Below are positions 42,804 through 61,315 of a stretch of DNA of 64,000 bases, piece after piece; position 1 is the stretch's first letter, and the number at the start of each line of letters is the position of its first letter. The notes under the pieces were generated by a model that made no database searches, was not told the DNA's origin, and saw nothing but the letters and a program-made list of their open reading frames with translations. Source of the DNA: Pirellulaceae bacterium (lineage in GTDB: Bacteria; Planctomycetota; Planctomycetia; Pirellulales; Pirellulaceae); the NCBI GenBank assembly GCA_029243025.1, contig JAQWSU010000051.1:62001-126000 (forward strand), written 5' to 3'. The translations under genes and the position numbers were made by a program.

Positions 42804-45800
42804 TTACTCGTCGCGAAGCGCTTCAAGTGTTGGTGTGGTGAGAACTCGGTAGATGGCCATGGCACCCGTGATCACTCCCACGATCAGCAACAAGCTTAAA
42901 ATGCTGAATACCGTGAACCAAGGTGGTTTTGCCCCACCCGACCAAGCGTGTGGTACGACTGCGATGAGTGCTGCGACTAATCCCATTCCCAGACCGGCAA
43001 GCAGGAGCACTAGATGTTCGCCGAGGACAAGATGGGCCAGCTGATACTTGGAGAATCCGACTGCCTGCAATAGGGCCAGTTCGTGTCGGCGTTCAAAAAC
43101 ATTTCGTAACTGCACCGCGGCTAAGCCAAAAGTTCCCAGCAATAGCCCCAATCCTCCCAGGCTTTGAAAGGTAGAAAGATAGGTGTTTTGAACCGCAAGC
43201 AGCTCTTGTAGAAAATCAGTCGATTCGGTGGTTGTCCAACCTTGGTCGCTGAAAGTTTCTTCCAGTAAACGAGCCGATTCATCGGTTTGCGAAGGTAAGC
43301 AGTGGATGAGAAAGTAGCGATATCCGCTGATGTTGGGGAATACGTTGAGAAGATTGTCTTCGCTGACGATCAATGCTCCCTGCAGGATTGTGTTAGATAA
43401 CAAGCCGACGACTTCGAAGGTTACAGTCCCCGCTGCGCCATAATCGATTTCAAATCGTTCACCGATGCCTCCGTAAAGATGCAGGCTGTACATCGCAGTG
43501 TTTTTGTCCAAGACAACGGGAATCGCGGATTCGAGATGCTGGTCAAGCAAAAGCCAGGGATTGGCCTTCGTTGTCGGATCGTTGCCAGCGCTGGCAGCCC
43601 ATCCGAATGCGGTTTTTTCTGGATTGTTGAAATGCTCGATGAAATTTGGCGGGCAGCCGATGACGCGCGGACGCTGAGATTGATACAGATTGCGACAACT
43701 CGCATCGTCGCCTCCCTGAAGGCGGAAGGAAAAAAACGTGGAGTTGTTTAGTGGCCCGGCCGCTGAGCCCATTACATCAACCCGCACCGTTGGATCGTTG
43801 AGGTTTTCAAAGATCGGCAGATCCGTTTGCGCAAATAACTGAAATCCACCTGTTCCTTCCGTGGTGGGACTCAGCCGAAAAGCACTGATGGCCACGATCA
43901 GAAAGCATGCCGCAGCCATCAAGCCAATGGTGAGCGTGCTGCGGCGGGGGTTGCGAGCGAGGTTTTTTAGGGCAAGCCGCCAGATGTTGAGCTTCTCTGG
44001 TTGGTCCTTCCCCCCAACAGCGAGTTGTTTCAGACGTTGCGATGTCCAAGTGAAGGCTGCGATCAACGCAATCGCACCGCTACCGAAGAAAGCCCCCGCT
44101 TGCGCTTCGCCCGCGAGGCGGGTCGCCAGGATCGCCAGCACGAGGGCAAGTAACAACAGGACTGGAGGCAGGTAGAACCATTGACGGCGAACGGCAATCG
44201 TTACGTCTGCGGTGACTCGTCCGCTGAGCAGGCGCCGCACAGAAAGTTGCCGCAATCCCCGCAAGGTGGCAATTAACGTTAGGAGCGATGCTGCAACTCC
44301 CCCCAACAAACCCAGTATGAGGCTCCAGGGATTGATCACCAATTCCAAGAACGGCGTGACGATTGCCTCGACCCACCAGGTCTTGAGACCGATCAGCATC
44401 AGATTGGCATAAGCGATACCGAGGAGACTACCGATCAGGGCGCCCCCCACGCTAAGGCCAAATCCTTCATAGAGAAACAAGCGGGTCATTTGTTTGCGCG
44501 TTAAGCCTACGGCCAGCAGCAGGCCGGCATTTCGACCTCGTTGTTCAACGGCAAGGCGAGACAACAGCGCCACGAGCATGATGGCAGAGGCGATGATGAA
44601 AAAACTGAATCCAAGAAAAAGTAAACTAAAAGGAGTAGTTCCCGATGAAGCCTGAAGGCCATCTGATTTGACATGTAACAAATGAAAACCGAATTGCTCA
44701 AGTTGAGCGTTGATCACTTGGCTCACTCGCTGGCGAATTTGTTCTTCGTTGACCGTATTATCGATCGGTAATCGAAAAGAAGTGGTCTGCCCGAACCGAC
44801 TACGCCACAAATCTTGGCCGGTAGCGAAGCTAATAAATGCTTTCGGGGTCGTTCGATAGTTGTCCCAGTAATCCTCGTCTTTGGGGTTTCGGATCCGACG
44901 GTAGTCGAATGGGAAAGGAGGGTCCCACTCATCGATTGATGCTTGATCCGTGATGCCGGGAACACTGGGAGTTAGGTCTGGGTCTGTGGCTGCTGACGGT
45001 GGACTTACGTATCGCGCGGAGGTATCGTCCGTATAGGGTAGCAAGGGGGGCGTGAGTGGCACGATCTCTCGCAAGCGAAACGCTCTCGTTGTCTCACGGG
45101 TTTCGCCATGTGTTGTTTCTGGATCGAAAAAAGAAATCTGAATTTCATCCCCAGGTTGGACATCAAGGTCATTAGCCGCCCAGGAGTTCAGTACAATTTC
45201 GTCATTTTGGAGAGGCGCGATTGGTTCGCCCTGTTTGTCGATCAGTGGGCCGAGTTGCGCGGTCGAATCGACGGCGGTGATGGTGGAGTAGGGAATCACC
45301 TGATCGGAGTCGGCTTGGCCAGTTTGGGCAATCGAATTGGCCAGATAAGTCATCACCGGCTGCACGTCGAACTCACCCAGCGCTTGTAGGATTGCATCGT
45401 GGACCTTATCCGAGAATACCATTCGGTCGGTCGAGAGGCTGTAATAGCGGTAGGCGATTTCCGGGGAGTTGCGTCCCTCATTCCAATATTGACGTTCGAC
45501 ACGTTTCAGAATCAGCCCCGCATCGTCTAGCGTTGGACGAATTGCCTCCTTCAGTCGGGCGACGCTGGCTGGATCAGGAGCAAGGTCAAGCCGTTTGCCC
45601 GCGAATAGAATCGCGTTGATCTTGTGCGGACGATCCAAGGCTGTCTGGAGCGTCTCCAGTGGCAAGAATGCGTTGAATGGGGTCGCTTGATTCGCTTGGA
45701 GTGAAAATCGCCCTAGTCCTTCTGCAGGAACAATCGCGACTACCTTGAGTTCTGCCAGACTCCGTGTTAAGTCAGAGGTGTCGGCCAGTGTGCTATCGGC

Positions 45801-46328
45801 CGCAATCGCTTTATCCTGGGCGAGTCGTAAGATGAGTGTGTCGCCAAGTTTGGCCTGAAGACGATCGGCGAGTGGCTGGTTTAAAACGATTTCTCGCCCA
45901 CTGGGGATTCGGGTAGGCTTTGTCTGGATATCTCCCAAATTCCAAAACGTCTCTGTGCTGCCGATCACCGTGATGTTTGTGGCCCGAAAGCTTTGATCGG
46001 TTGTGGGATGTTCTGCACTCGCTTGGCTGAATAGTATGGCTCCCTGTGCCGACTCAAAACCCGCCAATGCCTGCGGATCGGACTGAATTCTTTGCACAAG
46101 TTCGGCGGCAAAGAAATGGTCTGCGATCAGGATTTCATCGATCTTGCCAAGACGTTCGATTGTCAATCGCTGGAGGCTTCCACGGACTGAGTCCCCAACA
46201 ATCAATGCGCCGGTCAGGACCGCGGTGCCTGTAATGATCCCCAGCATTACTGCCAAGCTGACTTGCCAGTGATGTAGCAAGCTCTTGAGAGCGTACTGAC
46301 GACCGTCGAATTTGTGGGGTGTATCCAT
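42804..46328 (-). CDS. Large FtsX-type ABC transporter permease
   Basis: From the ATG at 46328 the protein has 1174 residues. One N-terminal helix (WQVSLAVMLGIITGTAVLTG) precedes a periplasmic domain, then FtsX-type blocks (FSFFIIASAIMLVALLSRLAVEQRGRNAG and, near the end, TYLSTFQSLGGLGLLLGTFG, with ALLQAVGFSKYQLAHLVLGE). The ATPase gene is 28 bp upstream. The fold and pairing match LolCE/MacB-like systems that release or export lipoproteins or peptides; the substrate is unknown. Length is about twice that of MacB, consistent with fused halves. Confidence 0.88.
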   Translation of the reverse strand: MDTPHKFDGRQYALKSLLHHWQVSLAVMLGIITGTAVLTGALIVGDSVRGSLQRLTIERLGKIDEILIADHFFAAELVQRIQSDPQALAGFESAQGAILFSQASAEHPTTDQSFRATNITVIGSTETFWNLGDIQTKPTRIPSGREIVLNQPLADRLQAKLGDTLILRLAQDKAIAADSTLADTSDLTRSLAELKVVAIVPAEGLGRFSLQANQATPFNAFLPLETLQTALDRPHKINAILFAGKRLDLAPDPASVARLKEAIRPTLDDAGLILKRVERQYWNEGRNSPEIAYRYYSLSTDRMVFSDKVHDAILQALGEFDVQPVMTYLANSIAQTGQADSDQVIPYSTITAVDSTAQLGPLIDKQGEPIAPLQNDEIVLNSWAANDLDVQPGDEIQISFFDPETTHGETRETTRAFRLREIVPLTPPLLPYTDDTSARYVSPPSAATDPDLTPSVPGITDQASIDEWDPPFPFDYRRIRNPKDEDYWDNYRTTPKAFISFATGQDLWRSRFGQTTSFRLPIDNTVNEEQIRQRVSQVINAQLEQFGFHLLHVKSDGLQASSGTTPFSLLFLGFSFFIIASAIMLVALLSRLAVEQRGRNAGLLLAVGLTRKQMTRLFLYEGFGLSVGGALIGSLLGIAYANLMLIGLKTWWVEAIVTPFLELVINPWSLILGLLGGVAASLLTLIATLRGLRQLSVRRLLSGRVTADVTIAVRRQWFYLPPVLLLLALVLAILATRLAGEAQAGAFFGSGAIALIAAFTWTSQRLKQLAVGGKDQPEKLNIWRLALKNLARNPRRSTLTIGLMAAACFLIVAISAFRLSPTTEGTGGFQLFAQTDLPIFENLNDPTVRVDVMGSAAGPLNNSTFFSFRLQGGDDASCRNLYQSQRPRVIGCPPNFIEHFNNPEKTAFGWAASAGNDPTTKANPWLLLDQHLESAIPVVLDKNTAMYSLHLYGGIGERFEIDYGAAGTVTFEVVGLLSNTILQGALIVSEDNLLNVFPNISGYRYFLIHCLPSQTDESARLLEETFSDQGWTTTESTDFLQELLAVQNTYLSTFQSLGGLGLLLGTFGLAAVQLRNVFERRHELALLQAVGFSKYQLAHLVLGEHLVLLLAGLGMGLVAALIAVVPHAWSGGAKPPWFTVFSILSLLLIVGVITGAMAIYRVLTTPTLEALRDE

Positions 46329-46356
46329 GCGCTGATCGTTGCGGATGCAATTTTGT

Positions 46357-47031
46357 TTATTTGATTTGCCCGCAGTCCAACTCGTAGCACTTTTGTAGTC
46401 GTGCGGCGAGCGTTGAACTGTGCGTGACGACAATCATCATCGTGTTGTGTTGTTTGTCCTGTTGTAAATCCAACAGTAAGTCGCTTACGGCGTCAGCCGT
46501 TGAGCGGTCCAGATTGCCAGTTGGTTCATCGGCGAGAAGTAGCATGGGTTGGTGAATCAATGCTCGAGCAATGGCCACTCGTTGTCGTTCGCCGCCAGAA
46601 AGTTCGCTTGGGCGGTGACTTAAACGGTCAGATAAGCCCACTCGGTCGAGCAACTCTTTGGCTCGATTGATTTCTGTCGCGGTCGATTTGCCCTGCGCAA
46701 GCGTCGGCACTAGTACGTTTTCAAAAGCGGAAAGCTGTGGCAGCAAGTGGTGATCCTGGAAAATAAAGCCCACCCGCTGATTCCGGAAATCTGCCAGTTC
46801 TTGGTCGCCCAGCGTGAAGGCATTTTGCTCTTGAAGACGGACTTGGCCGGAGCTGGGACGTTCCAAGGCGCCGACGATATATAACAAAGTGCTTTTGCCC
46901 GAACCACTAGGGCCAACGATTGCGAGGTTCTCACCCAGAGACATTTCAAACGAAATATCATTGAGGATCCCTAGGGATTTGCCTCGAGTTTCGTACGACT
47001 TTGAAAGATGTTCAATGACGAGGTCAGGCAT
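46357..47031 (-). CDS. LolD-like ABC transporter ATPase
   Basis: The 224-residue protein starts MPDLVIEHLSKSYE at 47031. Walker A is GPSGSGKST, signature LSGGERQRVAIARAL, Walker B LLLADEPTGNLD and H-loop VVTHS. The family (LolD/MacB/FtsE) powers FtsX-type permeases without driving solutes through the channel. It sits directly upstream of the large permease in one operon. The frame stays open to 47085, but the domain begins at the chosen ATG. Confidence 0.92.
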   Translation of the reverse strand: MPDLVIEHLSKSYETRGKSLGILNDISFEMSLGENLAIVGPSGSGKSTLLYIVGALERPSSGQVRLQEQNAFTLGDQELADFRNQRVGFIFQDHHLLPQLSAFENVLVPTLAQGKSTATEINRAKELLDRVGLSDRLSHRPSELSGGERQRVAIARALIHQPMLLLADEPTGNLDRSTADAVSDLLLDLQQDKQHNTMMIVVTHSSTLAARLQKCYELDCGQIK

Positions 47032-47127
47032 GGCGACAACAAGGGAAATTGGGGGAGTGATGAGAGCAACAACGCATGTGCTCATAGGTTATCAGGTCAG
47101 TTCTTGCTTTGGCTACCAGTTTGTGTC

Positions 47128-48060
47128 TTAACCGAGTTCGCTTTGCAGCAGCGCTAGACCAGCCAGCCCGTAAAACGTGTATTCAACATCGCAGGCTTCG
47201 TCCCATTCGGCGCCGTGGAAACCGCCCGCTGTCCGTTCCATTCCCGCGAAGTAATCCAAGGCCGCCTGGCAATCAATGGCGTCCTTGGCGGCTAAGTCGA
47301 TCAAGGTCAATACACCCGTGAAAGTGCTGAGCGTATCTGCGATCGGAATGCGCGAATTAGCGCGAATTCCTCCCGTCTCGACCTGCATGTCACTGAGGAA
47401 ATCGATCGTGTCTTCCGAGGTTTCAGCTTCCAATGCACCCAGCATTCGCAAGGTTCCTATTGCTGCGGCCGTCGGGTTCGTTCCCGCCCGCTTACTGACA
47501 CGAATCTCGCGAAACCCACCTCCGTCGGCTGCTTGAGAGAGGATGAATTTCACAATTCGTTCGGGTTCAGCAGCTGGACGCGTAATCAGCTCGCGGCAAA
47601 GTAGCACGAGAAAGGTGTGGTAGGTACTACTGGCCTTGCCTTCCGCCCCTTTTGCATATCCGCCGTCGTCGCACCGTAATTTTTCTAGTTCTTCGGCGAC
47701 TGCATCGGCCCAGTTCGGTGCAGCAGCGGCGAAGATGTCTTGGCCCGTGGCCGCGGCGATCAAATTCGCGCCGTAAATCAGCGAAAAAAAATCGACGATC
47801 GATTCCTGGCCAGACATCCTCGTTCGGAGGAAGTTCGCAGCTCGATCAGCAATTTCTCCGTCAAGCAGTCCAAGGATTGCCATGCTTCTGAGGCCAAAGC
47901 CCGTGTAGTACAGATCGCTATCACCTTCTCGCCCCGCGAATCCGCCGTCATCCCGCTGCGATTCGGTCAAGAAATGGGCATGCCTGGCTCGTACTTCTGT
48001 CGGCAATTGCGCCGTGGCGAGAGCAAGCCGAACAGTCAGGGATTCAAGGTAAGAAAGCAT
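47128..48060 (-). CDS. Prenyltransferase beta-subunit-like repeat protein
   Basis: The 310-residue protein is built of alpha-alpha barrel repeats with the PFTB signature: QRDDGGFAGREGDSDLYYTG, CDDGGYAKG, AADGGGFREI, ETGGIRANS and TAGGFHGAE. The order and the closing segment VEYTFYGLAGLALL resemble the Rab geranylgeranyl transferase beta chain. Of that enzyme's zinc ligands (Asp, Cys, His), the Asp remains (ADTLSTF) while Cys is Leu and His is Tyr. The enzyme activity is therefore doubtful. It is 12 bp downstream of a thioesterase gene. No alpha subunit was seen. Confidence 0.8.
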   Translation of the reverse strand: MLSYLESLTVRLALATAQLPTEVRARHAHFLTESQRDDGGFAGREGDSDLYYTGFGLRSMAILGLLDGEIADRAANFLRTRMSGQESIVDFFSLIYGANLIAAATGQDIFAAAAPNWADAVAEELEKLRCDDGGYAKGAEGKASSTYHTFLVLLCRELITRPAAEPERIVKFILSQAADGGGFREIRVSKRAGTNPTAAAIGTLRMLGALEAETSEDTIDFLSDMQVETGGIRANSRIPIADTLSTFTGVLTLIDLAAKDAIDCQAALDYFAGMERTAGGFHGAEWDEACDVEYTFYGLAGLALLQSELG

Positions 48061-48072
48061 GATGACAAGCGG

Positions 48073-48489
48073 CTACGTAGCGAGCCCCTCGAGCTTGTCA
48101 CGAACTTTCGTCGGAATCTCGGTAGAGGACCAATGGCCGTCCTCTTGACGACAGCAAACGGTTGTGATCTGGCCGCTCGCAATTTTACGGTCGTTACATA
48201 GAAATTGAAAATCGTAGGTGACACTGCGTTTACCGAGTTTCGTTACCGTCACCTCGATATCGATGAGCTCCTCAAACCGAACCGGATTGCGATAGTCGCA
48301 TGACGCAGAAATACGTGGCCAGCTGACTGCATTCTCTTCGTGCTTTGGCATCACACTCATTTCAATGCTGCGGAGTGCAGCATGCTCGGCTTGTTCCATC
48401 CAAACAAAGAAGACGGAAAAGTGAGCAATTCCAGCCGCATCCGTGTCGCGAAATTCGACGCGTCGACTTGTTCTAAATGCATTGCCCAT
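48073..48489 (-). CDS. Acyl-CoA thioesterase, hot-dog fold (4HBT type)
   Basis: The 138-residue protein starts MGNAFRTSRRVEFRDTDAAG at 48489. The segment RDTDAAGIAHFSVFFVWMEQ holds the catalytic Asp and the family fingerprint. It should hydrolyse acyl-CoA thioesters; the chain is unknown. It is translated just ahead of the prenyltransferase-like gene. An earlier ATG at 48537 in the same frame cannot be excluded. Confidence 0.85.
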   Translation of the reverse strand: MGNAFRTSRRVEFRDTDAAGIAHFSVFFVWMEQAEHAALRSIEMSVMPKHEENAVSWPRISASCDYRNPVRFEELIDIEVTVTKLGKRSVTYDFQFLCNDRKIASGQITTVCCRQEDGHWSSTEIPTKVRDKLEGLAT

Positions 48490-48552
48490 CGTGATCTCGG
48501 GGGAGTACCTGGCATCAATCGATCTGTTTGCACCCATACTCTGCGCAAGAAT

Positions 48553-48608: not shown

Positions 48609-48881
48609 TCAGTCGCCAACGTAAGGCAAGAGCCCCATGAAACGCGCCCGTTTGATGGCCCGCGTTACTGCTCGCTGACTTACTGCTGAGCAACCCGTTT
48701 TGCGCCGAACGACGATCCGACCGTGTCGATTGACCAATTTCTTGAGCAGATCAACGTCCTTATAGTCGACGAACATCGGACGGGGCCGTTTGCCATCGAC
48801 GAAAATCGGATCCTTCTTCTTTGCTTTCGTTCGGGCGCGCGCCTTTCGTCGCGAGCGAACCGGTCGTTTCTTAAAGGCCAT
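48609..48881 (-). CDS. rpsR: Ribosomal protein bS18
   Basis: A 90-residue protein, with a basic N-terminus ([16 protein letters not shown]) and the S18 core: [38 protein letters not shown] and LLPYVGD at the C-terminus. It is part of the 30S platform. In many bacteria rpsR sits with rpsF and rplI, but here it stands alone, ending in its own terminator. Confidence 0.96.
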
Positions 48882-51730: not shown

Positions 51731-53602
51731 CTACGAAGCGGCCTGGGTGAGATTGGTGATGGTGGGGAGGATGGCTGCCGGCTGTTGGGCTTCCCGTTCC
51801 AGTACGGTATCGATCAAGTAATAGAGGAGCCGACGCATTTCTTCGGGCTTGATTTCGTCTGCAATTGCCTCGGCACGATCTTGGTGCTTGTCAACGAGTT
51901 TTTGAGCCTTTTCGAAAACCTTCGCTTCTTCATAAAGCTTGCGGACGCGAGCCAGCTTTTCAGAGGCTGGCATGTCGGCTGGCATGTCGGCTGGCATGTC
52001 ACAGTCTTTTTCGGCAAGCGATAGCAGTTCTTGGCGACCCTCAGGCGACTGTCCCTCGAGCGCCAGGGCCCACAACAAGGTCGGTCGGCCGTGGAGTGTG
52101 TCGCCACCTGCCTCCAGCTTGTTGTTTTGGTCGCCTTCCCAGTCTTTTAGGTCGTTGAGAATCTGGAAGGCCACTCCCAGATTACGCGCGAATAGTTTCA
52201 GGGGTTGACGGTAATCGTCTAAGGAAACGGCCAGACGCACGCCTGTGAAAAAGGCAGCCTCAAAAGCAGGTGCCGTCTTTAACGCGTAAATTCGAAGTGC
52301 GTCCAGCGGTGTGAGTTCTTTATTCTTGGAGTCCCGCCAAGCCAGTTCGGCGCCTTGGCCTTCCGCCAGCTTGAGGTGGGCTTGAGCTAGGCAATCCAGG
52401 ATTTCAACGGTGACATCTGGCCCTAGCTCGCCCGCTTCACGACTCACCAATCGATAGCCCATGCCAATCAGGTAGTCGCCTGCGTTAATTGCGGTGGGGA
52501 TTCCGTATTGACGATGCATTGTTTCTTCGCCGTAGCGGAATTTGTCATCGTCTTCGATGTCATCGTGGACGAGTGAAGCTTTGTGAAATGTTTCGATCGA
52601 CATTGCGGCACGCTTAACGGCGTCGAGCTTTTCTTTTGCCAAGTGCTGGGCTCCATCCGCCTGTGTGCCGTGGCCCCCGGTCAACGCATCATGAATTGCC
52701 AAGCTGATGAAGGGTCTGGCGTGCTTGCCGCCTTTCGAGAGAAAGTCGTAGGACAAAGCTTCAGTGGCAGCGATTGGGTCGAGTGCATCCAGGCCATCTA
52801 CCTGGTTCAGTCGAGGCCCCGGCCGTAAACGGGGGGCTAATCGTTCCAGTTCGTCGTCGTTGAACATCGAGGTCGCAGCCCGCATCAAGTGAACATAGCT
52901 GCGAGTCGGTTGTAGCGACCGCTGAGGCTGGATGTTAATCATCTCCGTCACCCAATCCTCGTCCACCGACGTGTTTCTGCAGTCGCTGGAAAGGAGCGGA
53001 ATCGCCATGCACGGGATGCCTGCAAGGAGTATTTTGTCAATTGCTTTTTCAAGAACGTTCAAGCATGCCACACCGACGATTGCGTCAACATAGCCACTGA
53101 CAATAATCTTGAGTACGACGGGAGAGCCCTCCGCGACCAGTACTCGATAGCCCATTTCCTCGGCAAGTGTGCGGAAGTCGGCGATGCTGCAGGCACCACA
53201 TGTTTTACAATCAAGGCCGAAATCGTCGTAGTCGGCCGGACAGCCTTCCGCGTGCTTCAGACAGTGTGGCAGCAGGAACAGGCGTCGCTCTGGAGGAATG
53301 TGGGCCACTTGCTCTTCCCAAAAAACGGACGAAAGTACAACCATCGTCCAGCCCAAATAGCCTTCACCCAGCTTTTGTTTGTCGAGCAGTTCCCGAGCTA
53401 TCTGCTCCATGTTGTCTTTGGTCAGGGGAACCGATTTGTCGATTTTCGCGACAATGTCGCGGCATTGTTGACGCAAGTCGTCACGCAACTCACGCGACTC
53501 AGGCACCAACTTTAAATGGGCCGTCTTGCGACGCCGTGATTTTTTCTTGCGTTCGCCATCAGGTTGTGTTGAGTTTACTCGAGGTGCCGGTGCCGTAGCC
53601 AA
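51731..53602 (-). CDS. DUF116-polyprenyl diphosphate synthase fusion
   Basis: A 623-residue protein from a TTG start at 53602 (AAGGGCGG upstream). After a basic leader, residues ~25-240 are DUF116, with LPHCLKHAEGCPADYDD and LDCKTCGACSIADF, a Cys cluster. Residues ~265-600 are a trans-prenyl synthase: first Asp-rich motif HDDIEDDD (~344) and second NDLKDWEGD (~482), whose first Asp is Asn. It would condense IPP with allylic diphosphates; chain length is not predictable here. The segment CDMPADMPADMPASEK comes from a 12-bp triplicate repeat. It lies 15 bp downstream of the cyclase gene. Confidence 0.88.
   Translation of the reverse strand: MATAPAPRVNSTQPDGERKKKSRRRKTAHLKLVPESRELRDDLRQQCRDIVAKIDKSVPLTKDNMEQIARELLDKQKLGEGYLGWTMVVLSSVFWEEQVAHIPPERRLFLLPHCLKHAEGCPADYDDFGLDCKTCGACSIADFRTLAEEMGYRVLVAEGSPVVLKIIVSGYVDAIVGVACLNVLEKAIDKILLAGIPCMAIPLLSSDCRNTSVDEDWVTEMINIQPQRSLQPTRSYVHLMRAATSMFNDDELERLAPRLRPGPRLNQVDGLDALDPIAATEALSYDFLSKGGKHARPFISLAIHDALTGGHGTQADGAQHLAKEKLDAVKRAAMSIETFHKASLVHDDIEDDDKFRYGEETMHRQYGIPTAINAGDYLIGMGYRLVSREAGELGPDVTVEILDCLAQAHLKLAEGQGAELAWRDSKNKELTPLDALRIYALKTAPAFEAAFFTGVRLAVSLDDYRQPLKLFARNLGVAFQILNDLKDWEGDQNNKLEAGGDTLHGRPTLLWALALEGQSPEGRQELLSLAEKDCDMPADMPADMPASEKLARVRKLYEEAKVFEKAQKLVDKHQDRAEAIADEIKPEEMRRLLYYLIDTVLEREAQQPAAILPTITNLTQAAS
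51965..52000. repeat. In-frame 12-bp tandem repeat, three copies
   Basis: GGCTGGCATGTC occurs three times, at 51965, 51977 and 51989, within the polyprenyl synthase C-terminal region. It encodes repeated Met-Pro-Ala-Asp and keeps the frame. Confidence 0.95.
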
Positions 53603-53617: not shown

Positions 53618-55474
53618 TTAGTGAGTGAGTTGAGCTGGAGTGAGTTTTCGGTCGGCGGGTGGAATCATCTGTCGCACGGCGGAACCGAGTGTTGAAACCA
53701 GAAAAATCAACGGGTACAAGTCTTCATAATACCAAAGCTTGGCGAAGTAAAAACCGATTGGGCTGGGTTGTCGATGGCGATTCGCGTTAACTTCTTCTAA
53801 CAGCCAAGCAATGCCGGTTTCTACGGATTTTTTTACTCGCTCGTCGCGATGCATCTCAGGCAGCAATGCTTCTACCGCCAGAGCTGTTTCTTCGATACTA
53901 CTCAACAGCTGAGATTCACCCGAATCCAGGTCCCGTAAGCCACCTCCCCAGCCTCCGTCAAGATTTTGTAAATTTAACAGGCCAATACGTCCTTTTTGGG
54001 CCAATGGGTGATCCGACTTACCCAGATCTGTGAAGCCCCGCAACACCTTGGCGGTTCCATAAATCGGGTTTTCGTCATTGGTGCGATCTTGGTTGCCAAA
54101 CCAAAGCGGCGTCCAGGTCCCATCTGGCAGCTGTTTACGCCCCAAAAATCGCAGGCCGCGTTGGACGGCCTGGTTCCATTCGGACGGCTCGATGAGATGG
54201 TGCCACGCTTGCAGGGCTCGCAAGGCGTGCGCTGTTAGATCGCTTCCGCTACGGTCGAATGGCAGCTTCCCCCAACCCCGGCAGAAGGTCGGCCAGCCTC
54301 CATCTCGATTTTGTAGATCCAGCAGCCATTGGATGCCAGCCCTGGCTGCCGAAATAATTTTCTGTTTTTTTTCATCGGTGGTTGTGTCCAAGTCGACGAC
54401 TTTCCGAAGAGCCAAGAGCGCGCCCGGTGTGTCATCCGAATCTGGGACCGCACCGCTCAGGTCCGACCAGCCCCAGCCTCCCGGGGCTGCGCCGGTGAAT
54501 GGATGAGGTGACAAGTGCTGGCAACTCAGCAACCAGTCGATACACGTATCAAGCTTTTCCTCGGCGAAGTCTTGCATTCCAAGCGCATTGAGTGCCAGGG
54601 AAGTGTTCCAGGTCGACAGGTTGGTGTCGATCGGCCAGGAGCCGTCTTCACGAGCTGAGGCCAATAAAAACTCGACGCCTTTTTCAACCACGGGATGTTG
54701 AACTTTGCCTGCTGCTGCCAAGCTCATCACCACGAAGCTGGTTAATGGAATTGCTTCCAAATAGCCCCCGCTTTCGGGTTGCATTCGTTCCAGCACTTCT
54801 AGGCTCGGCTGCAAGGCCAGGTTGCGGGTGATGCGCGAAATAGGATTCCAGGGAGGGCGGTGATGGAAGCGGACCTGACCAATCGCCACGAGTGCCGGAA
54901 TCGCGTAGCTGACGACGGGCAGTTGTAGGAACCGATACATGCTCTGTGGCAAGGCGGCCAGTTCAAAGGGGAGAGGTGAAACCTTGCCCCAAGACACCGT
55001 GCCCGCTAACGCACAGTTTGTCAGGATCGGTACCGCAAAGGTTTTGTCCCTGCCGTATCGTTTTTTGAGTCCTTTGATTCCGCCTTGAGCTTCCATGTAT
55101 TGCTCGGCTCGATCAAGCAACCCATTCGTCTCTGCCGGAACTCCTGTCAAACGAAACGCCGCATGGGCCAGCATGCTCGTGGCAATATTGGAATGACTGA
55201 GGTCTGTGTCTCCCCAACCTCCGTCGCTATTCTGTTGCTGCGACAGCCAGCGAAGACCCCGTACGATCGATTCGCTGAGCGGGCCATCGGTCGGGTCGGC
55301 CGAGTCTTGTTCCCATCTTCGTTGCCGCTGCACAATCGACAGAGCGCTGATTGCCGTTGCGGTTGCCAACGCAGAGGATGCGAGTCGGCCCACCCAATGG
55401 GGGCCACTCCGCTCCGCAAGCAGTTCGCGGCGCAGTTGACGATTCGCTTCAAGCAGTCGGATTCGGTCGATCAT
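53618..55474 (-). CDS. shc: Squalene-hopene cyclase-type terpene cyclase
   Basis: The 618-residue protein starts at the ATG at 55474; the TTG 11 codons upstream is not used. The repeats QQNSDGGWGD, GGWGW, LQNRDGGWPTF and LQNLDGGWGG are QW motifs of the family. The protonating DxDDT motif is present as DSDDT (~345-349). It should cyclise squalene to a hopene-like product at the membrane; other cyclic triterpenes are possible. It starts an operon with the DUF116-polyprenyl synthase and DUF98-like genes. Confidence 0.88.
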   Translation of the reverse strand: MIDRIRLLEANRQLRRELLAERSGPHWVGRLASSALATATAISALSIVQRQRRWEQDSADPTDGPLSESIVRGLRWLSQQQNSDGGWGDTDLSHSNIATSMLAHAAFRLTGVPAETNGLLDRAEQYMEAQGGIKGLKKRYGRDKTFAVPILTNCALAGTVSWGKVSPLPFELAALPQSMYRFLQLPVVSYAIPALVAIGQVRFHHRPPWNPISRITRNLALQPSLEVLERMQPESGGYLEAIPLTSFVVMSLAAAGKVQHPVVEKGVEFLLASAREDGSWPIDTNLSTWNTSLALNALGMQDFAEEKLDTCIDWLLSCQHLSPHPFTGAAPGGWGWSDLSGAVPDSDDTPGALLALRKVVDLDTTTDEKKQKIISAARAGIQWLLDLQNRDGGWPTFCRGWGKLPFDRSGSDLTAHALRALQAWHHLIEPSEWNQAVQRGLRFLGRKQLPDGTWTPLWFGNQDRTNDENPIYGTAKVLRGFTDLGKSDHPLAQKGRIGLLNLQNLDGGWGGGLRDLDSGESQLLSSIEETALAVEALLPEMHRDERVKKSVETGIAWLLEEVNANRHRQPSPIGFYFAKLWYYEDLYPLIFLVSTLGSAVRQMIPPADRKLTPAQLTH

Positions 55475-55739
55475 AAAATGAACGCGGATCGAAGGCCAAA
55501 GTTTCAAGTGTGAGGGCGAGCTTTAATCGAGTTTTGCGCGGTTGTGGAAGGTGACGTTCATCACTGCTGAAAGGTTTCGTCTTTCTCCTGAACACAACCG
55601 CATCGCCCAACGGGTGCAAACTCTTAAGCCGATAAAATATTCAGGCGGTGGGAGGGAGTTAACCGTAGCAGTTTAAATGGCCCAAACGCGGCTGTCGAGA
55701 TCTGAGTCGGCGGTTCCTGCCGAATCCCCCGCTCTGTGA

Positions 55740-55745: not shown

Positions 55746-55855
55746 ACGTTGCCGCAATTCAATGGCGGCTCGCGATGTTACCCCTGACGACAGACCGGTG
55801 AGTCTAGCGGTCAGGTAAATTAGCCGATTTTTGATGCTGTAACGTGTGGTCAAAT

Positions 55856-57106
55856 ATGTATTTAAGCTTGACAAAACGGTTGCTGTTCGAGACCGATAAA
55901 CGTTTGCTCTGGAAACTAACGTGGAATATGGGCTTCAAGGGGATGAGGTCCGTACAAAAACATAAACGGCGGCTGAAACGGGGGCAATTTTTTCCCCCGT
56001 TCATCTACATTTCGATTATCAACAGTTGCAACTTGCGTTGTCAGGGCTGTTGGGTCGATGTGGCAGCCCCGCAACACAAGATCGAATTGGATGATTTGGA
56101 TCGGTTGGTGACAGAGTCCAAGGCAATGGGGAATTCATTTTTTGGCATCTTGGGGGGAGAGCCGTTCATGCACCCGGAGATGTTGGAACTCTTCGAACGT
56201 CATCCGGATTGCTACTTCCAGGTGTTCACAAACGGGCACTTTATTTCTGAGGAAGTTGCGAAGCGCCTGCGACGTGTGGGAAACGTTACACCGCTGATTA
56301 GTGTTGAGGGAAACGAAATCGTCAGTGATGAGAGGCGAGGCCGTTTGAATGTGTTGAGCCAGACCATGCAAGGTTTGCAGCACTGTCTTGAAAACAAAGT
56401 AATGACCGGGGTCTGCACGAGTCTTTGCCAAACCAATTATGATCTGCTTACCGAAAAATGGGTTGATCGGCTGATCGAGATGGGAGTGATGTACACCTGG
56501 TTTCATATCTATCGACCGGTGGGACCCGATGCGGCCCCCGAGTTGTGCTTGACACCCGCTCAACAGGCCAAGGCACGGCAGTTCGTTGTCGATATGCGTG
56601 CCAAGAAGCCGATCATCATCATTGACGCCTACTACGATGGCGAAGGTCAAGCCTTGTGTCCTGCCGCAACTGGCTTCACGCATCACATCAGCCCTTGGGG
56701 TGATATCGAGCCATGTCCCGTGATCCAACTCGCAACGGAATCCATACACGAAAAGAGACCCTTACGTGAGACGTTCAACGAATCGGATTTCTTGCGAGAC
56801 TTTCGGCAGACGGCTGCGGAGGCAACCCGAGGCTGCATCGTCCTAGAACGCCCGGACTTGTTAGAGGCTTTGGCGGAAAGACACGGAGCACGCGATACGA
56901 CGGCCCGACAGACGGGGTTTGCCGAGCTTGGTGAAATGGAAACACGACCATCGCAATACGATCCTTCCTGTGAAATTCCGGAAAAGAGTTGGGCCTATCG
57001 CTTAGCAAAGCGATTCTGGTTTAACGATTATGGAGCTTACACGAAGCATTTTCGACGCGAAGATTGGAAGCCGACGCGTCCCGACATGGACGCCAGCGAC
57101 GTTTAG
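55856..57106 (+). CDS. Radical SAM protein with C-terminal Cys cluster
   Basis: The 416-residue protein starts MYLSLTKRLLFETDKRL at 55856 (GTG four codons upstream possible). The radical SAM motif is INSCNLRCQGCWVDVAAP (CxxxCxxC, ~60), with LGGEPFMHPEMLEL and TNGHFISEEVA. A C-terminal region with CPAATGFTHHISPWGDIEPC suggests a SPASM-like auxiliary cluster. It is divergent from the cyclase operon. It does not match HpnH (no DUF3463-like region seen), so its substrate is open. The stop lies in a tandem repeat. Confidence 0.85.
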   Translation: MYLSLTKRLLFETDKRLLWKLTWNMGFKGMRSVQKHKRRLKRGQFFPPFIYISIINSCNLRCQGCWVDVAAPQHKIELDDLDRLVTESKAMGNSFFGILGGEPFMHPEMLELFERHPDCYFQVFTNGHFISEEVAKRLRRVGNVTPLISVEGNEIVSDERRGRLNVLSQTMQGLQHCLENKVMTGVCTSLCQTNYDLLTEKWVDRLIEMGVMYTWFHIYRPVGPDAAPELCLTPAQQAKARQFVVDMRAKKPIIIIDAYYDGEGQALCPAATGFTHHISPWGDIEPCPVIQLATESIHEKRPLRETFNESDFLRDFRQTAAEATRGCIVLERPDLLEALAERHGARDTTARQTGFAELGEMETRPSQYDPSCEIPEKSWAYRLAKRFWFNDYGAYTKHFRREDWKPTRPDMDASDV

Positions 57107-57322: not shown

Positions 57323-59296
57323 ATGTCGAGTTTTCTGCGAGTTGTTCGATTGAGTTTGCGCTACCGTTTCACGGTGGTCGGGACCATTGTTTGCGCGCTG
57401 GCAGTGGGAGTCCTCTGGGGGGGGAACATCGGTGCTGTTTTCCCGTTCGTCGAAGTGGTTTTTCGCGGTCAGTCGCTGCAGGAATGGGTGGATGGTGAGG
57501 TTGAGAAGGCGGAGCAGAAAATCGAGCGAATGGATGCTCAGATTGCGGGAGTTGCCGGTGAACCTGAGCTTGATTCGAATCAGCGAAAGCGATTGGTTGC
57601 TCGCAGGCGGGCCGAGGTGGCCGCTTTGGAGGCGTATCGGCGTGCGCAGCCTTATATTTATCGCTATCTTCCCGAGCAACCGTTCACAACTTTGTTGCTT
57701 GTTATGATGCTCCTTTTTATTGGTACGTTGATAAAAGATGTCTTTCTTGCGTCGAGTACCGTGCTGACCGAACGCTTAGCTCAAGCGGGAACGATTCAGC
57801 TTCGCAAGCAATTGTTTAATCAGACTTTGCGGACGGAGTTACAGAGTTTTCAAAATAGGGATTCCAGTCAATTATTGAGTCGACTGACCTATGACCTGGA
57901 GCAAGTGACAATTGGTTTACGTATGCTATTTGGCCGCTCTATTCGCGAACCGCTGAAGATGCTGGCGTGTTTGATTGGTGCGGCCTTCATCTGCTGGCGG
58001 TTACTGTTGCTTTCGATGTTTTTGGCTCCACTGGCCGCTCTTTTGATTTCACTCCTGAACCGTGCGTTAAAACGAGCGAATGCCCGCGCGTTGGACGAAA
58101 TGTCACAGATTTATTCCGTGCTTGGAGAAACCTTGCGGGGAATGAAAATTGTGAAGGCATACACGATGGAGAGAATTGAACGTCGGCGATTTGATGTGGT
58201 CTCGCGGCGATTCTTTCAGCGCGCCATGCGAGTGGCGATTTTTGACGCGATGGTACGTCCCACGATCGAAATGATGGGAATTGGAATCATTTGCGTGGCA
58301 ATTCTCGGCGGTGCCTATTTGGTGTTAAATCAAGAGACTCATCTTCTGGGCCTTAAAATCAGCGAACGGCCGCTATCGATCAGTGCTGTAATGCTGTTTT
58401 TTGGTTTGCTGACGGGGGTCAGCGATCCGGCTCGAAAACTGTCGGGCGTGATTGGTAAGTTGCAACGCGCGGCAGCGGCGGCAGATCGTGTGTTTGAACT
58501 GATTGACCGCAGTTCGGAGTTACCTCGTGCTTCGCGACCCGTGGATACCGTGAAGCATCAACGAGAACTGCGGTTTGAGAACGTCAAGTTTGCTTACCGA
58601 GATGGTCCGCTGGTCTTGGACGAGGTCAGTTTGCGCGTGCAAGCAGGTGAGACGATTGCGTTTGTAGGGCCCAATGGGTGCGGCAAAAGTACGCTCGCTA
58701 ATCTTGTGCTGCGTTTCTTCGATCCCGACTCTGGAGCTGTTTCTATTGATGGGGTGGATCTTCGGCAGATGCGATTGCGAGACTTACGGTCTCAGGTCGG
58801 ACTCGTGACGCAAGAAGCTGTTCTGTTTAATGATACGGTGGAAGCAAATATTCGCCTGGGTCACCCGAATGCGAGTCGGGAGCAGGTCGTTCGGGCAGCT
58901 CAACAGGCACATGCTCACGATTTTATTGAGAATCAACTCGCCGATGGCTACCAAACGGTGGTTGGCGAAGGGGCGAGCCGCCTTTCGGGTGGACAGAAGC
59001 AACGTATCTCGCTAGCTCGCGCCATCTTGAGGGACCCCAAGATTCTGATTCTCGATGAGGCGACAAGCCAAGTAGATGTCGATAGCGAGCGGCAAATTCA
59101 CGCCGCCCTGGCCGCGTTTATGCAGGGACGAACCTCTCTGATTATCACGCATCGGACGGGGATTCTGGAACTCGCGGACCGGATTATTGTGATGGAAGGT
59201 GGTCGGATTACCGACGACGGAACGTTGCCCGAGTTGATGGCTCGCAGTTCCGCTTTTCATCGTCTCTCGACGGATCATCGGGCCAAGAGTGCCTGA
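57323..59296 (+). CDS. MsbA-like ABC exporter, full-length half-transporter
   Basis: A 657-residue protein with six membrane helices and a nucleotide-binding domain: Walker A GPNGCGKST, signature LSGGQKQRISLARAI, Walker B ILILDEATSQVD and H-loop ITHR. An insertion of about 80 charged residues, coiled-coil-like (VEKAEQKIERMDAQIAG, RKRLVARRRAEVAALEAY), lies between helices 1 and 2 on the outer side. It probably exports a lipid or lipid-linked glycan as a homodimer. Three sulfotransferase genes follow on the same strand. Confidence 0.9.
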   Translation: MSSFLRVVRLSLRYRFTVVGTIVCALAVGVLWGGNIGAVFPFVEVVFRGQSLQEWVDGEVEKAEQKIERMDAQIAGVAGEPELDSNQRKRLVARRRAEVAALEAYRRAQPYIYRYLPEQPFTTLLLVMMLLFIGTLIKDVFLASSTVLTERLAQAGTIQLRKQLFNQTLRTELQSFQNRDSSQLLSRLTYDLEQVTIGLRMLFGRSIREPLKMLACLIGAAFICWRLLLLSMFLAPLAALLISLLNRALKRANARALDEMSQIYSVLGETLRGMKIVKAYTMERIERRRFDVVSRRFFQRAMRVAIFDAMVRPTIEMMGIGIICVAILGGAYLVLNQETHLLGLKISERPLSISAVMLFFGLLTGVSDPARKLSGVIGKLQRAAAAADRVFELIDRSSELPRASRPVDTVKHQRELRFENVKFAYRDGPLVLDEVSLRVQAGETIAFVGPNGCGKSTLANLVLRFFDPDSGAVSIDGVDLRQMRLRDLRSQVGLVTQEAVLFNDTVEANIRLGHPNASREQVVRAAQQAHAHDFIENQLADGYQTVVGEGASRLSGGQKQRISLARAILRDPKILILDEATSQVDVDSERQIHAALAAFMQGRTSLIITHRTGILELADRIIVMEGGRITDDGTLPELMARSSAFHRLSTDHRAKSA

Positions 59297-59510: not shown

Positions 59511-60296
59511 ATGCTACTTTCACATTCCCATAACTTCCTGTTTGTTCATCTCGCCAAGACCGGTGGCACGAGTGTTCGTGCGGCTTTGTCGAGTCGAAGT
59601 TGGAGGGATCCGCTCCATTGGCCGACGTTTTTCTGCCATCGGGTCAGTGAGTTTTGTGGGCACCGATTGGGATGCAAGATTCCACGGCACGCACCAGCCC
59701 TGGTGGCCAAGGAACTATTGCCGCCAACTTTCTTCGACGAGCTTTTTAAGTTTAGTTTTGTGCGAAATCCTTGGGATCGTGTGGTAAGTGCCTACCACCA
59801 CTTTGAACGGGAACGGCGTGACGTTTTGGCGGAGCAACGGATCCGTGACATTGCCCATTTCACCGATTGGTTGTTGGACGTTCCTTTAAACGAAACAAGT
59901 CGCGCGGGTTTAGTTGCCGCGTTGCGCCGCCCCCAGATTGAACACCTCGTCGATTTCCACGGGAATCTATTGGTGGATTTCGTGGGGCGTTACGAACATT
60001 TGCCTGAAGACTTCCAGTGGGTCGTGGAACAAGTCGCGTTTAAGGGTGTGAAATTGCCGCACAAGCGTCGGTCGCAGCGCCCCCGAGATTACCGACTAAG
60101 TTACACGGACCGAATGGCTGAGCAAGTTGCCGACCATTTTGCCCCCGACATCGCTGCATTTGAGTACAGTTTCGATCCTCCGGATTTGTTGGAGATCAAT
60201 CGAAAAGACGCTGCTCACCGAATGAGAAATCATTCGGTGAATCCCTTCGTTTTGGGAAGGCATAAGCCTCAGGATGGGAAGTCGATAAAATGTTAA
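59511..60296 (+). CDS. Sulfotransferase family 2 protein
   Basis: A 261-residue protein with the PAPS 5'-phosphosulfate loop FVHLAKTGGTSVRAAL and the 3'-phosphate motif FSFVRNPWDRVVSAY (Sulfotransfer_2 pattern). It transfers sulfate from PAPS, probably to a sugar. No signal peptide or membrane anchor was seen, so it should act in the cytoplasm. The next sulfotransferase gene overlaps its end by seven bases. Confidence 0.88.
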   Translation: MLLSHSHNFLFVHLAKTGGTSVRAALSSRSWRDPLHWPTFFCHRVSEFCGHRLGCKIPRHAPALVAKELLPPTFFDELFKFSFVRNPWDRVVSAYHHFERERRDVLAEQRIRDIAHFTDWLLDVPLNETSRAGLVAALRRPQIEHLVDFHGNLLVDFVGRYEHLPEDFQWVVEQVAFKGVKLPHKRRSQRPRDYRLSYTDRMAEQVADHFAPDIAAFEYSFDPPDLLEINRKDAAHRMRNHSVNPFVLGRHKPQDGKSIKC

Positions 60297-61282
60297 ATCG
60301 CAATGCAATTTTCGTAAATGGGTTTTCGCGTGGCGGGACAACGATGTTGACCAATCTTCTGGCATCACATCCCACCGTTTGCCTGGTCGGCGAGACTCAT
60401 CATGTTTTTAAAGGTCACAACATTACCGACAGTCGTTGGCGAGTGCTCAACAAGTGTTTGTATCATGATGCTCCGATCCTGATGCGACACGGGCAAAACT
60501 TTTTTAGCCCGCGCTTAGTCAAGCCTCGTAAATCGCTCTGCCGTTGGTCAGAAAATCGAATCGATCGGATTCTCTATCGGGAGAAGTTGAGGTCAAATCA
60601 TCCACTCCTGAATCAATATAAGACGGCCAACCTGGAATATACGCGTGAAGAACTCATGGAGTCGCGATTGCTTTGCAAGAACATTGACGGCATGATTTAT
60701 GTAAATGATGCCTTTTCACAGATGTATCCCGATGGCACCTATTTTGGTCTGGTTCGAAACGGATTCGCGGTTTGTGAAGGGCATGTGAGACGTGGACGCT
60801 CTGCTCAGGAGATTGGTTGGCGTTACAGAGTATTGGCTGAAAAAATGCTGTCCGATGCCGAACGTTTTGCTAATTATCACATGGTGCGTTTCGAAGATTT
60901 GGTTGCCGATCCGATGGAAACCGTGGCTGCCGCCTATGCCGCTGCGGGACTTGATGTGGACCGTCTGGACAAAGTTCGTATGCAAGTTCGTCGCGTCATG
61001 GATGCGAATGGCAATCACCAATTGGTCGGCGATTCAGAATGGGATGTTGTCTGGCTGACCTTCTCAGAGCTTGGTGGCTATTTCAAACAGGATGTCAATC
61101 TGAATCAAATTAAACGTTTGTCGGCTGTGGATCGTGACGCGTTTCTCGAAGAAGCGGGGGACGTGATGGAACGACTCGGGTACCCGTGTGAAGTGAGCGA
61201 GTCTCGTGGATACTGTGTTCCTGTTCTCCAGCGACAGGCCAAGCCATTGAAGGTCGCCGATGTGAGTCGCCGTGCTGCCTGA
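60290..61282 (+). CDS. Sulfotransferase-like protein
   Basis: A 330-residue protein with the PAPS-binding loop FVNGFSRGGTTMLTNLLASH near its N-terminus, then GLVRNGFAVCEGHVRRGRS and MVRFEDLVADPMETV, the classic later motifs of Sulfotransfer_1/3 enzymes. The acceptor is unknown. It overlaps the previous sulfotransferase and belongs to the same unit. Confidence 0.87.
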   Translation: MLNRNAIFVNGFSRGGTTMLTNLLASHPTVCLVGETHHVFKGHNITDSRWRVLNKCLYHDAPILMRHGQNFFSPRLVKPRKSLCRWSENRIDRILYREKLRSNHPLLNQYKTANLEYTREELMESRLLCKNIDGMIYVNDAFSQMYPDGTYFGLVRNGFAVCEGHVRRGRSAQEIGWRYRVLAEKMLSDAERFANYHMVRFEDLVADPMETVAAAYAAAGLDVDRLDKVRMQVRRVMDANGNHQLVGDSEWDVVWLTFSELGGYFKQDVNLNQIKRLSAVDRDAFLEEAGDVMERLGYPCEVSESRGYCVPVLQRQAKPLKVADVSRRAA

Positions 61283-61315
61283 CGAATTGTGATCTAATCA
61301 AGTTGAGGTGATTTG

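What the first reader, a model, noticed from the sequence alone, without database searches (positions are those of the whole stretch)
47128..48060. GGTase-beta-like protein lacking two zinc ligands
The repeat order and closing YTFYGLAGLALL match the Rab geranylgeranyl transferase beta chain. By my reading, Cys and His of the Asp/Cys/His zinc site are Leu and Tyr. A eukaryote-like fold without its catalytic metal suggests a binding role for isoprenoids, or a different chemistry. An ABC pair with LolD-like ATPase lies downstream.
Basis: partly seen in the sequence, partly recalled or inferred. Interest (0 to 1): 0.65.

Follow-up and report, generated by a model that had tools for sequence, protein, structure and literature searches.

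The report
Zinc-free prenyltransferase-like terpenoid-cluster protein
A planctomycete protein folds like the barrel of enzymes that attach isoprenoid tails to eukaryotic proteins, but the cysteine and histidine that would hold the zinc are missing, unchanging acids and tyrosines stand in their place, and its gene nearly always travels with genes for making and cyclising isoprenoids.

Summary
Window 47128-48060 (minus strand) encodes a 310-aa six-repeat alpha-alpha toroid. For its AlphaFold model (pLDDT 96) all 50 listed VIA-align matches are protein prenyltransferase beta chains (RabGGTase beta, Z 28.1). In the linear register the Asp/Cys/His zinc site reads Asp242/Leu244/Tyr294; against farnesyltransferase the sequence favours a one-repeat circular permutation, giving Asp291/Glu293/Tyr52. 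All six residues are invariant in 83 aligned homologues, and no Cys or His column reaches 90%. The basic diphosphate pocket is also gone (permuted register). It does not look like a protein prenyltransferase.

Across 392 genomes of the phylum it co-occurs almost one-to-one with a DUF116-polyprenyl diphosphate synthase (88 both, 3 and 6 alone, 295 neither), a DxDD class II cyclase (88/3/4/297) and, less tightly, a radical SAM enzyme (80/11/5/296). Outside its class it lies within 4 kb of the synthase in 42 of the 50 genomes that have both.

I read it as a zinc-free member, with an acid/tyrosine site, of a planctomycete terpenoid module, probably an enzyme. The reaction is unproven; a non-catalytic isoprenoid-binding role is the main rival.

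The parts
47128..48060 (-). The toroid protein (310 aa), PF00432 family
   Evidence: AlphaFold pLDDT 96.1; RabGGTB Z 28.1
47170..47190 (-). Repeat 6 motif D291-V-E293-Y294-T-F-Y297; D291, E293, Y294, Y297 invariant in 83; aligned with FTase beta D297-G-C299-Y300 in the permuted register and with the RabGGTB His290 repeat in the linear register
47896..47916 (-). Repeat 1 motif D49-L-Y51-Y52-T-x-F55; aligned with FTase D-F-Y-H362-T-C-F and RabGGTB D-P-F-H290-T-L-F
47323..47337 (-). Repeat 5 motif D242-x-L244-S245-T; aligned with RabGGTB D238/C240 (linear) or FTase His248 (permuted)
48073..48537 (-). 4HBT acyl-CoA thioesterase-like gene, 12 bases upstream of the toroid gene
   Evidence: a match in 58 of 80 named loci
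46357..47085 (-). LolD-like ABC ATPase, 42 bases downstream (TIGR02211 257.5 bits, below its cut-off 307.75)
   Evidence: a match in 54 of 80 named loci
42804..46433 (-). FtsX/MacB_PCD ABC permease, 1209 aa as called
   Evidence: a match in 37 of 80 named loci
51731..53602 (-). DUF116-polyprenyl diphosphate synthase fusion; DDIED present, D347/D348/D351 and D484/D487 conserved at 94% or more of 18
53618..55507 (-). Squalene-cyclase-like class II cyclase, DSDDT at residue 356
55844..57106 (+). Radical SAM protein (CxxxCxxC), partner by co-occurrence; HpnH model 31 bits, far below its 225 cut-off

Best explanation
The protein is a zinc-free relative of protein prenyltransferase beta subunits and of class II terpene cyclases, and it works in a conserved planctomycete terpenoid module. 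Shown: the toroid fold (predicted with high confidence); absence of the Cys/His zinc ligands; loss of the basic diphosphate residues in the permuted register; an invariant Asp/Glu/Tyr set (D242, D291, E293, Y51, Y52, Y147, Y294, Y297, with D49 in 81 of 83); near one-to-one co-occurrence with a polyprenyl diphosphate synthase and a DxDD cyclase, and less tightly with a radical SAM enzyme. Inferred: these residues ring the mouth of a barrel lined with aromatics; the barrel holds the polyprenyl chain made by the synthase; and the acid/tyrosine site does acid-base chemistry (protonation-driven isomerisation, cyclisation or hydration) or Mg2+-assisted diphosphate chemistry, before or after the DxDD cyclase. 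No protein is prenylated.
For: Fold: pLDDT 96.1, pTM 0.93; the 50 entries listed by VIA-align are all protein prenyltransferase beta chains, RabGGTB Z 28.1, rmsd 2.6 over 269 residues; the distant subfamily folds the same way (pLDDT 96.3; best Z 26.8). Site: D242, L244, S245, D291, E293, Y294, Y297, Y51, Y52, Y147 are each 83 of 83; the best Cys/His columns are H27 66/83, H148 55/83, C155 42/83. Diphosphate pocket in the permuted register: FTase H248 -> D242, R291 -> A284, K294 -> E288 (variable), only Y300 -> Y294 kept (FTase residues from a passage of PMC12493179). PPTA alpha-subunit matches over the cut-off: 0 of 20 genomes (limits under Membership tests). Module: toroid/DUF116-synthase 88 both, 3 toroid only, 6 synthase only, 295 neither; toroid/cyclase 88/3/4/297; all three in 85; toroid/radical SAM 80/11/5/296. 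Within 4 kb of the synthase in 42 of the 50 genomes outside the window's class that have both; side by side on one strand in 9 of 41 stretches. The cyclase keeps DxDDT in 18 of 18.
Against: No reaction, ligand or metal has been shown. The register is not settled: RabGGTase does not favour the permuted order and its best single stretch implies a third one. Genomes share ancestry, so the co-occurrence counts are not independent events, and the cut-offs were set by eye. Inside the window's own class the toroid and synthase genes lie within 12 kb in only 8 of 38 genomes. The radical SAM gene is missing (at 293 bits) from 11 of 91 toroid genomes. The toroid has no DxDD motif, and in the SsDMS alignments its DxEYT repeat is never the one set against the cyclase's acid motif, so likeness to class II acid motifs is a pattern, not an alignment. 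Invariant residues could serve folding or partner binding.
Confidence: 0.5

Rival explanations
1. A non-catalytic isoprenoid-binding protein (carrier, chaperone or scaffold) that keeps the polyprenyl chain soluble and hands it between the synthase, the cyclase and a membrane or export step.
For: Zinc site lost and, in the permuted register, the basic diphosphate pocket too; the barrel is kept; near one-to-one company of synthase and cyclase genes.
Against: Invariance of several polar, potentially catalytic residues (D242, S245, D291, E293, Y52, Y294) across 83 sequences down to 27% identity to the window protein is more than a greasy pocket needs.
Confidence: 0.25
2. A zinc-free prenyltransferase that moves the polyprenyl group to a non-thiol acceptor such as a sugar, an aromatic ring or a lipid head, possibly with Mg2+ held by the acid cluster.
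For: Fold and best sequence match are to prenyltransferases; a dedicated polyprenyl diphosphate synthase is a near-constant partner; Tyr300 equivalent kept.
Against: His248, Arg291 and Lys294 of the diphosphate pocket are replaced by Asp, Ala and a variable residue in the permuted register; no alpha subunit found over the cut-off.
Confidence: 0.14
3. A one-domain squalene-cyclase fragment or degenerate cyclase, perhaps derived from the partner cyclase.
For: Foldseek ranks one-domain cyclases high, first for the distant subfamily (8paj, E 7.3e-7); SsDMS scores 64-66 bits, level with FTase at 62-66.
Against: SQHop_cyclase_C 16.6 bits is below its 26.1 cut-off while PF00432 is passed; VIA-align shows only prenyltransferases in its 50 rows for both models; the toroid profile scores the 18 partner cyclases at 14.5-59.5 bits, below RabGGTB at 77; no DxDD in the window protein.
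Confidence: 0.07
4. A working protein prenyltransferase beta subunit of bacteria.
For: Fold and best sequence match.
Against: Asp/Cys/His in 0 of 83 in four registers counted; no PPTA match over the cut-off in 20 genomes; diphosphate residues lost in the permuted register.
Confidence: 0.02

Closest known systems
Rab geranylgeranyltransferase beta subunit (RabGGTB) and protein farnesyltransferase beta subunit
   Same: Six-repeat alpha-alpha toroid, Z 28.1 and up to 26.9; GG loops; repeat motifs such as D-x-Y-[Y/H]-T; FTase Asp297 and Tyr300 kept as D291 and Y294 in the permuted register.
   Different: Zinc Cys and His replaced (Glu/Tyr or Leu/Tyr by register); H248/R291/K294 lost (permuted register); no alpha subunit found; repeat order apparently permuted by one relative to FTase (72.2 bits as one alignment against 55.8 + 11.2 in native order).
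One-domain class II terpene cyclases (MstE, Archangium/Cystobacter SHC 8paj/8pak) and SsDMS
   Same: Same barrel fold, bacterial, terpenoid context; Foldseek E 9.5e-6 to 6.1e-5 for 8paj, 8pak and MstE with the window model, 7.3e-7 for 8paj with the distant subfamily; SsDMS 64-66 bits by profile.
   Different: No DxDD in the window protein; registers against SsDMS inconsistent between stretches.
DUF116-polyprenyl synthetase fusion Psta_0175 of Pirellula staleyi (PMC5898192, passages seen)
   Same: Same kind of fusion as the window's 51731-53602 protein.
   Different: The passages seen note the fusion and suggest electron transfer for DUF116; they mention no toroid or cyclase partner.
Squalene-hopene cyclase and hopanoid (hpn) pathway
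   Same: Partner cyclase has DxDDT and SHC-type domains; radical SAM distantly like HpnH.
   Different: Partner scores 109 bits on the hopene cyclase model against a cut-off of 431, and the radical SAM 31 against 225 on HpnH; no squalene/phytoene synthase family match in 5 of 20 module-bearing genomes, one of them a single-contig genome at 100% completeness.

Membership tests
Protein prenyltransferase beta subunit (FTase/GGTase-I/RabGGTase) | Six-repeat alpha-alpha toroid fold | tested here: met
   predicted model, (RabGGTB Z 28.1)
Protein prenyltransferase beta subunit (FTase/GGTase-I/RabGGTase) | Zinc site Asp/Cys/His | tested here: not met
   D/L/Y (linear) or D/E/Y (permuted), each 83 of 83; D/C/H in 0 of 83 in four registers, Cys absent in all; no Cys/His column at 90%
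Protein prenyltransferase beta subunit (FTase/GGTase-I/RabGGTase) | Diphosphate pocket His248/Arg291/Lys294/Tyr300 (FTase numbering, passage of PMC12493179) | tested here: not met
   D242/A284/E288(variable)/Y294 in the permuted register; only Tyr kept
Protein prenyltransferase beta subunit (FTase/GGTase-I/RabGGTase) | Partner alpha subunit (PPTA, PF01239) | tested here: inconclusive
   0 of 20 genomes over the cut-off; weak matches in 6 of 20 and in 4 of 14 control genomes. No control rang over the cut-off, and in 5 of the 20 (the window's genome among them) only 150 of 159-226 first-look candidates were scored
Protein prenyltransferase beta subunit (FTase/GGTase-I/RabGGTase) | Transfers prenyl to protein cysteine | not testable with these tools
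   needs a bench assay
Class II terpene cyclase (squalene-hopene type or one-domain) | Alpha-alpha barrel | tested here: met
   Foldseek 8pak TMq 0.66, MstE TMq 0.63
Class II terpene cyclase (squalene-hopene type or one-domain) | DxDD general-acid motif | tested here: not met
   none in the window protein; D-x-D-D letters occur somewhere in 2 of 83 members only; DxEYT and DxYYT are the nearest conserved patterns
Class II terpene cyclase (squalene-hopene type or one-domain) | SQHop_cyclase Pfam score over cut-off | tested here: not met
   16.6 against 26.1 bits
Pfam PF00432 Prenyltrans (sequence family) | Score over gathering cut-off | tested here: met
   58.4 against 26.5 bits
Planctomycete terpenoid module (DUF116-synthase, cyclase, radical SAM) | Co-occurrence and linkage | tested here: met
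   linkage loose inside the window's class (8 of 38 within 12 kb)
Planctomycete terpenoid module (DUF116-synthase, cyclase, radical SAM) | Shared biochemical product | not testable with these tools
   needs lipid analysis of mutants

The most novel reading that the evidence does not exclude
The toroid is a circularly permuted cousin of protein prenyltransferase beta subunits in which the zinc triad Asp/Cys/His became Asp/Glu/Tyr and the basic diphosphate pocket turned acidic. It works as a new type of acid-driven one-domain terpene cyclase or isomerase in an undescribed planctomycete isoprenoid lipid pathway that need not start from squalene.
Probability: 0.28. Interest if true: 0.82.

Novelty: new variant of a known kind. 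Interest (0 to 1): 0.62.

Why it matters
One barrel fold carries zinc-thiolate protein prenylation in eukaryotes and acid-driven terpene cyclisation in bacteria. A conserved bacterial family that sits nearest the first by fold, lacks its zinc chemistry, and travels with enzymes of the second bears on how one became the other. The module also points to a terpenoid of unknown structure in the planctomycetes, with a short list of genes to delete or express. It warns against the name 'prenyltransferase' that a PF00432 match alone would suggest.

Tried and rejected
Protein prenylation: disfavoured on the missing zinc ligands and diphosphate residues; the alpha-subunit search found none over the cut-off but is limited. 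Squalene-cyclase fragment: disfavoured, though Foldseek for the distant subfamily puts 8paj first, which counts for it; cyclases are absent from the 50 VIA-align rows shown, which is a capped list. A direct equation of DxEYT with the class II DxDDT acid motif: attractive as a pattern, but in the printed SsDMS alignment the stretch DVADT (the D303A mutant chain; the mutated site is taken from PDB titles) is set against toroid repeat 5 (20.1 bits) or repeat 3 (26.7 bits), and the best stretch (34.6 bits) begins after it; never against repeat 6. So I do not claim it.

Register: RabGGTase does not decide it. Its pieces sum to 77.5 bits in native and 75.8 in permuted order, and its single best stretch (36.8 bits) pairs toroid repeats 5-6 with RabGGTase repeats 2-3, a third register; there the ligands would fall on Asp90 (69 of 83), position 92 (no Cys) and His148 (55 of 83). 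A repeat-by-repeat sum favours the one-repeat rotation for RabGGTase (10.7 against 7.7 linear and 9.2 for the third register) and FTase (9.8 against 0.9 and 5.7), in both subfamilies, but 82 and 9 of 720 arbitrary repeat assignments do as well or better. RabGGTase repeat 1 and FTase repeat 6 were lacking in that test. A control, RabGGTase against FTase, gave the unrotated register as expected. I take VIA-align to be sequential, so its linear ranges cannot exclude permutation.

The viral fold library gave nothing at E <= 0.001. dN/dS with the nearest relative was not usable: dN 0.21, dS returned as undefined. Internal stops reported in many radical SAM matches look like terminal stops read through at the alignment end (in the one case checked, L072/G116, the match is as long as the ORF plus its stop), not recoding. 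Squalene synthase family: present in 15 of 20 module-bearing genomes, so a squalene route is not excluded for most. Paper searches showed nothing on this toroid family or on its partnership in the listings; several listings were capped (one search showed 12 of 845 papers, 10 of 45, 10 of 24, 15 of 24, 6 of 17). I saw listings and, for PMC5898192, PMC12493179, PMC7839719, PMC13290415, PMC12365925 and PMC1994686, passages only (for PMC13290415 also section 8).

Choices that affect counts: in the co-occurrence tables I counted 91 of the 96 toroid genomes, leaving out five whose best E was 9.6e-5 or weaker (G134, G336, G416, G409, G070); DUF116 matches of 99.7 bits or more (94 of 145 genomes), called fused from open-frame length (286 aa upwards, some cut by contig ends), not checked one by one; cyclase matches at E 5.5e-29 or better (92 of 97; the weakest, G334, is a 103-bit fragment); radical SAM matches of 293 bits or more (85 of 110). 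These cuts were set by eye after seeing the lists. With all 96, toroid and synthase are together in 90, toroid alone 6, synthase alone 4 (hand count). In some searches at most 5, 3 and 4 first-look candidates of a genome were scored, so absences are less sure than presences. That the four searches drew the same 392 genomes is judged from the handles listed. Alignment A1 holds 83 of the 85 homologues; L019 and L051 were left out by choice.

Full report
WHAT IS THERE. The minus-strand ORF at 47128-48060 encodes 310 aa. It starts 12 bases after a 4HBT thioesterase-like gene (48073-48537) and is followed after 42 bases by a LolD-like ABC ATPase (46357-47085) and a 1209-aa FtsX/MacB permease (42804-46433), all in the same direction. 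About 4-9 kb away lie a DUF116-polyprenyl synthetase fusion (51731-53602), a squalene-cyclase-like protein (53618-55507) and, on the plus strand, a radical SAM protein (55844-57106).

THE FAMILY. Matches at E <= 1e-3 occur in 46 of 60 relatives and 96 of 392 genomes drawn across the phylum, the window's own genome included. A close set (67 sequences) and a distant set (18) were aligned; 83 of these 85 form alignment A1. Invariant in 83 of 83 are Y51, Y52, F55, Y147, A199, D242, L244, S245, D291, E293, Y294, Y297 and four glycines; D49 is D in 81. The best Cys or His columns reach only H27 66/83, H148 55/83 and C155 42/83, so no family-wide Cys/His zinc site exists, whatever the register. Named members from GTDB genomes include Blastopirellula marina, Roseimaritima, Neorhodopirellula, Stieleria and Rhodopirellula.

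THE FOLD. The AlphaFold model has mean pLDDT 96.1 and pTM 0.93: thirteen helices, which I read as six inner and six outer helices plus one at the N-terminus. Among solved structures the 50 entries listed by VIA-align are all protein prenyltransferase beta chains: RabGGTB Z 28.1, rmsd 2.6 over 269 residues (model 18-308, chain 17-304), GGTase-I Z 27.0, FTase up to 26.9. A member of the distant subfamily (pLDDT 96.3) gives the same picture (best Z 26.8), though Foldseek there ranks a one-domain squalene-hopene cyclase first (8paj, E 7.3e-7) with RabGGTase (1.2e-6) and MstE (2.2e-6) close behind. By profile, RabGGTB scores 76-77 bits, SsDMS 64-66, rat and human FTase 62-66 and SHC 50-51 (SsDMS named from titles). 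So the nearest solved relatives are the protein prenyltransferases, with bacterial class II cyclases not far behind. I built no tree.

THE ZINC SITE AND THE REGISTER. Repeats, however, allow other registers. Against FTase the profile aligns repeats 2-6 with FTase repeats 1-5 as one stretch and repeat 1 separately with FTase repeat 6. When FTase pieces are put in that permuted order the two fuse into one alignment of 72.2 bits over positions 32-305, against 55.8 + 11.2 in native order. Repeat-by-repeat sums lean the same way for both eukaryotic proteins and both subfamilies, modestly. RabGGTB does not bear this out on its own: 77.5 bits native against 75.8 permuted, and its best single stretch (36.8 bits) pairs repeats 5-6 with RabGGTB repeats 2-3, a third register. 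In the permuted register FTase D297, C299 and H362 become D291, E293 and Y52; Y300 becomes Y294; and the diphosphate residues H248, R291 and K294 become D242, A284 and a variable E288 (FTase residues from a passage of PMC12493179). In four registers counted, Asp/Cys/His occurs in 0 of 83 and the Cys in 0 of 83; His occurs at the third place only in the third register, in 55 of 83. So the thiolate-activating zinc site is gone; the loss of the basic diphosphate grip is read in the permuted register. I could not measure distances, as no coordinates were available.

NO ALPHA SUBUNIT FOUND. PPTA (PF01239) has no match over its cut-off in 20 module-bearing genomes; weak matches occur in 6 of the 20 and in 4 of 14 control genomes. 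No control rang over the cut-off, and in 5 genomes, the window's own among them, only 150 of 159-226 candidates were scored, so this is supporting, not decisive.

THE COMPANY. In 9 of 41 stretches examined the toroid and synthase genes, as picked by a crude ORF caller that missed some toroid genes, stand side by side on one strand, with the cyclase and often the radical SAM gene near; in L077 the run also holds GcvH-like, CobW, 4Fe-4S and aminotransferase-V (NifS-like) genes. Over 392 genomes the toroid and the DUF116-synthase occur together in 88, toroid alone in 3, synthase alone in 6, neither in 295; toroid and cyclase 88/3/4/297; all three in 85; toroid and radical SAM 80/11/5/296. Cut-offs were set by eye, not every first-look candidate was scored, and shared ancestry inflates formal significance. 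Match starts of toroid and synthase lie within 4 kb on one contig in 42 of the 50 genomes outside the window's class that have both, and in 4 of 38 inside it (8 of 38 within 12 kb, the window among them). In named loci close to the window, matches to 4HBT (58 of 80), LolD (54 of 80) and FtsX (37 of 80) are the common local partners, the synthase in 16 of 80; these 80 are the closest of 567.

THE PARTNERS. The cyclase keeps DxDDT in 18 of 18, the motif whose central Asp is the general acid of class II cyclases (passage of PMC7839719). The synthase keeps its aspartate motifs. Five of 20 module-bearing genomes, one a single-contig genome at 100% completeness, have no match at E <= 1e-5 to the squalene/phytoene synthase family, so at least there the cyclase probably does not use squalene made by such an enzyme; two of the five are only 61% and 81% complete. 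The DUF116-synthetase fusion itself is in print (Psta_0175, passage of PMC5898192).

HOW IT MOST LIKELY WORKS. Shown: predicted fold, lost zinc ligands, invariant acid/tyrosine set, module partnership. Inferred: the synthase makes a polyprenyl diphosphate; the toroid's barrel holds the chain; its acid/tyrosine mouth does proton chemistry or Mg2+-aided diphosphate chemistry; the DxDD cyclase and radical SAM enzyme act in the same pathway. I put 0.5 on this reading as a whole, 0.25 on a non-catalytic carrier or scaffold, 0.14 on a zinc-free transferase to a non-thiol acceptor, and little on a cyclase fragment or a true protein prenyltransferase.

NOVELTY. The fold family is known. The zinc-free, probably permuted, acid-site branch and its module partnership did not appear in the (partly capped) listings of my searches of one open-access library, which does not show that they are undescribed. 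I call it a new variant of a known kind.

Noticed in passing
51731-53602: DUF116 joined to a polyprenyl diphosphate synthase; DUF116 matches of this strength (99.7 bits or more) in 94 of 392 phylum genomes; the fusion is already noted in PMC5898192.
   Followed up: yes
53618-55507: Very divergent squalene-cyclase-like protein with conserved DxDDT (18 of 18), far below the hopene cyclase cut-off; substrate unknown.
   Followed up: partly
55844-57106: Radical SAM protein with CxxxCxxC and further conserved C-terminal cysteines, distantly HpnH-like, co-occurring with the module.
   Followed up: partly
L077:476-10893: In L077 the module sits in a run with GcvH-like, CobW, 4Fe-4S and NifS-like genes (families of this whole set tested there only); by BLAST clustering the set recurs wholly or in part in L070-L073, L078 and L079.
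   Followed up: partly
59511-62152: Three consecutive sulfotransferase-family genes next to an ABC transporter (57323-59296) beyond the terpenoid genes.
   Followed up: no
48609-48881: A protein read as ribosomal protein bS18 (name recalled, not searched) just upstream of the thioesterase-toroid run; a match lies in 50 of 80 named loci.
   Followed up: no
G000:C16:58206-58877: The window's genome has only one, partial-looking squalene/phytoene synthase match (112 bits, profile positions 2-192), where 12 of the 20 genomes searched have two.
   Followed up: no
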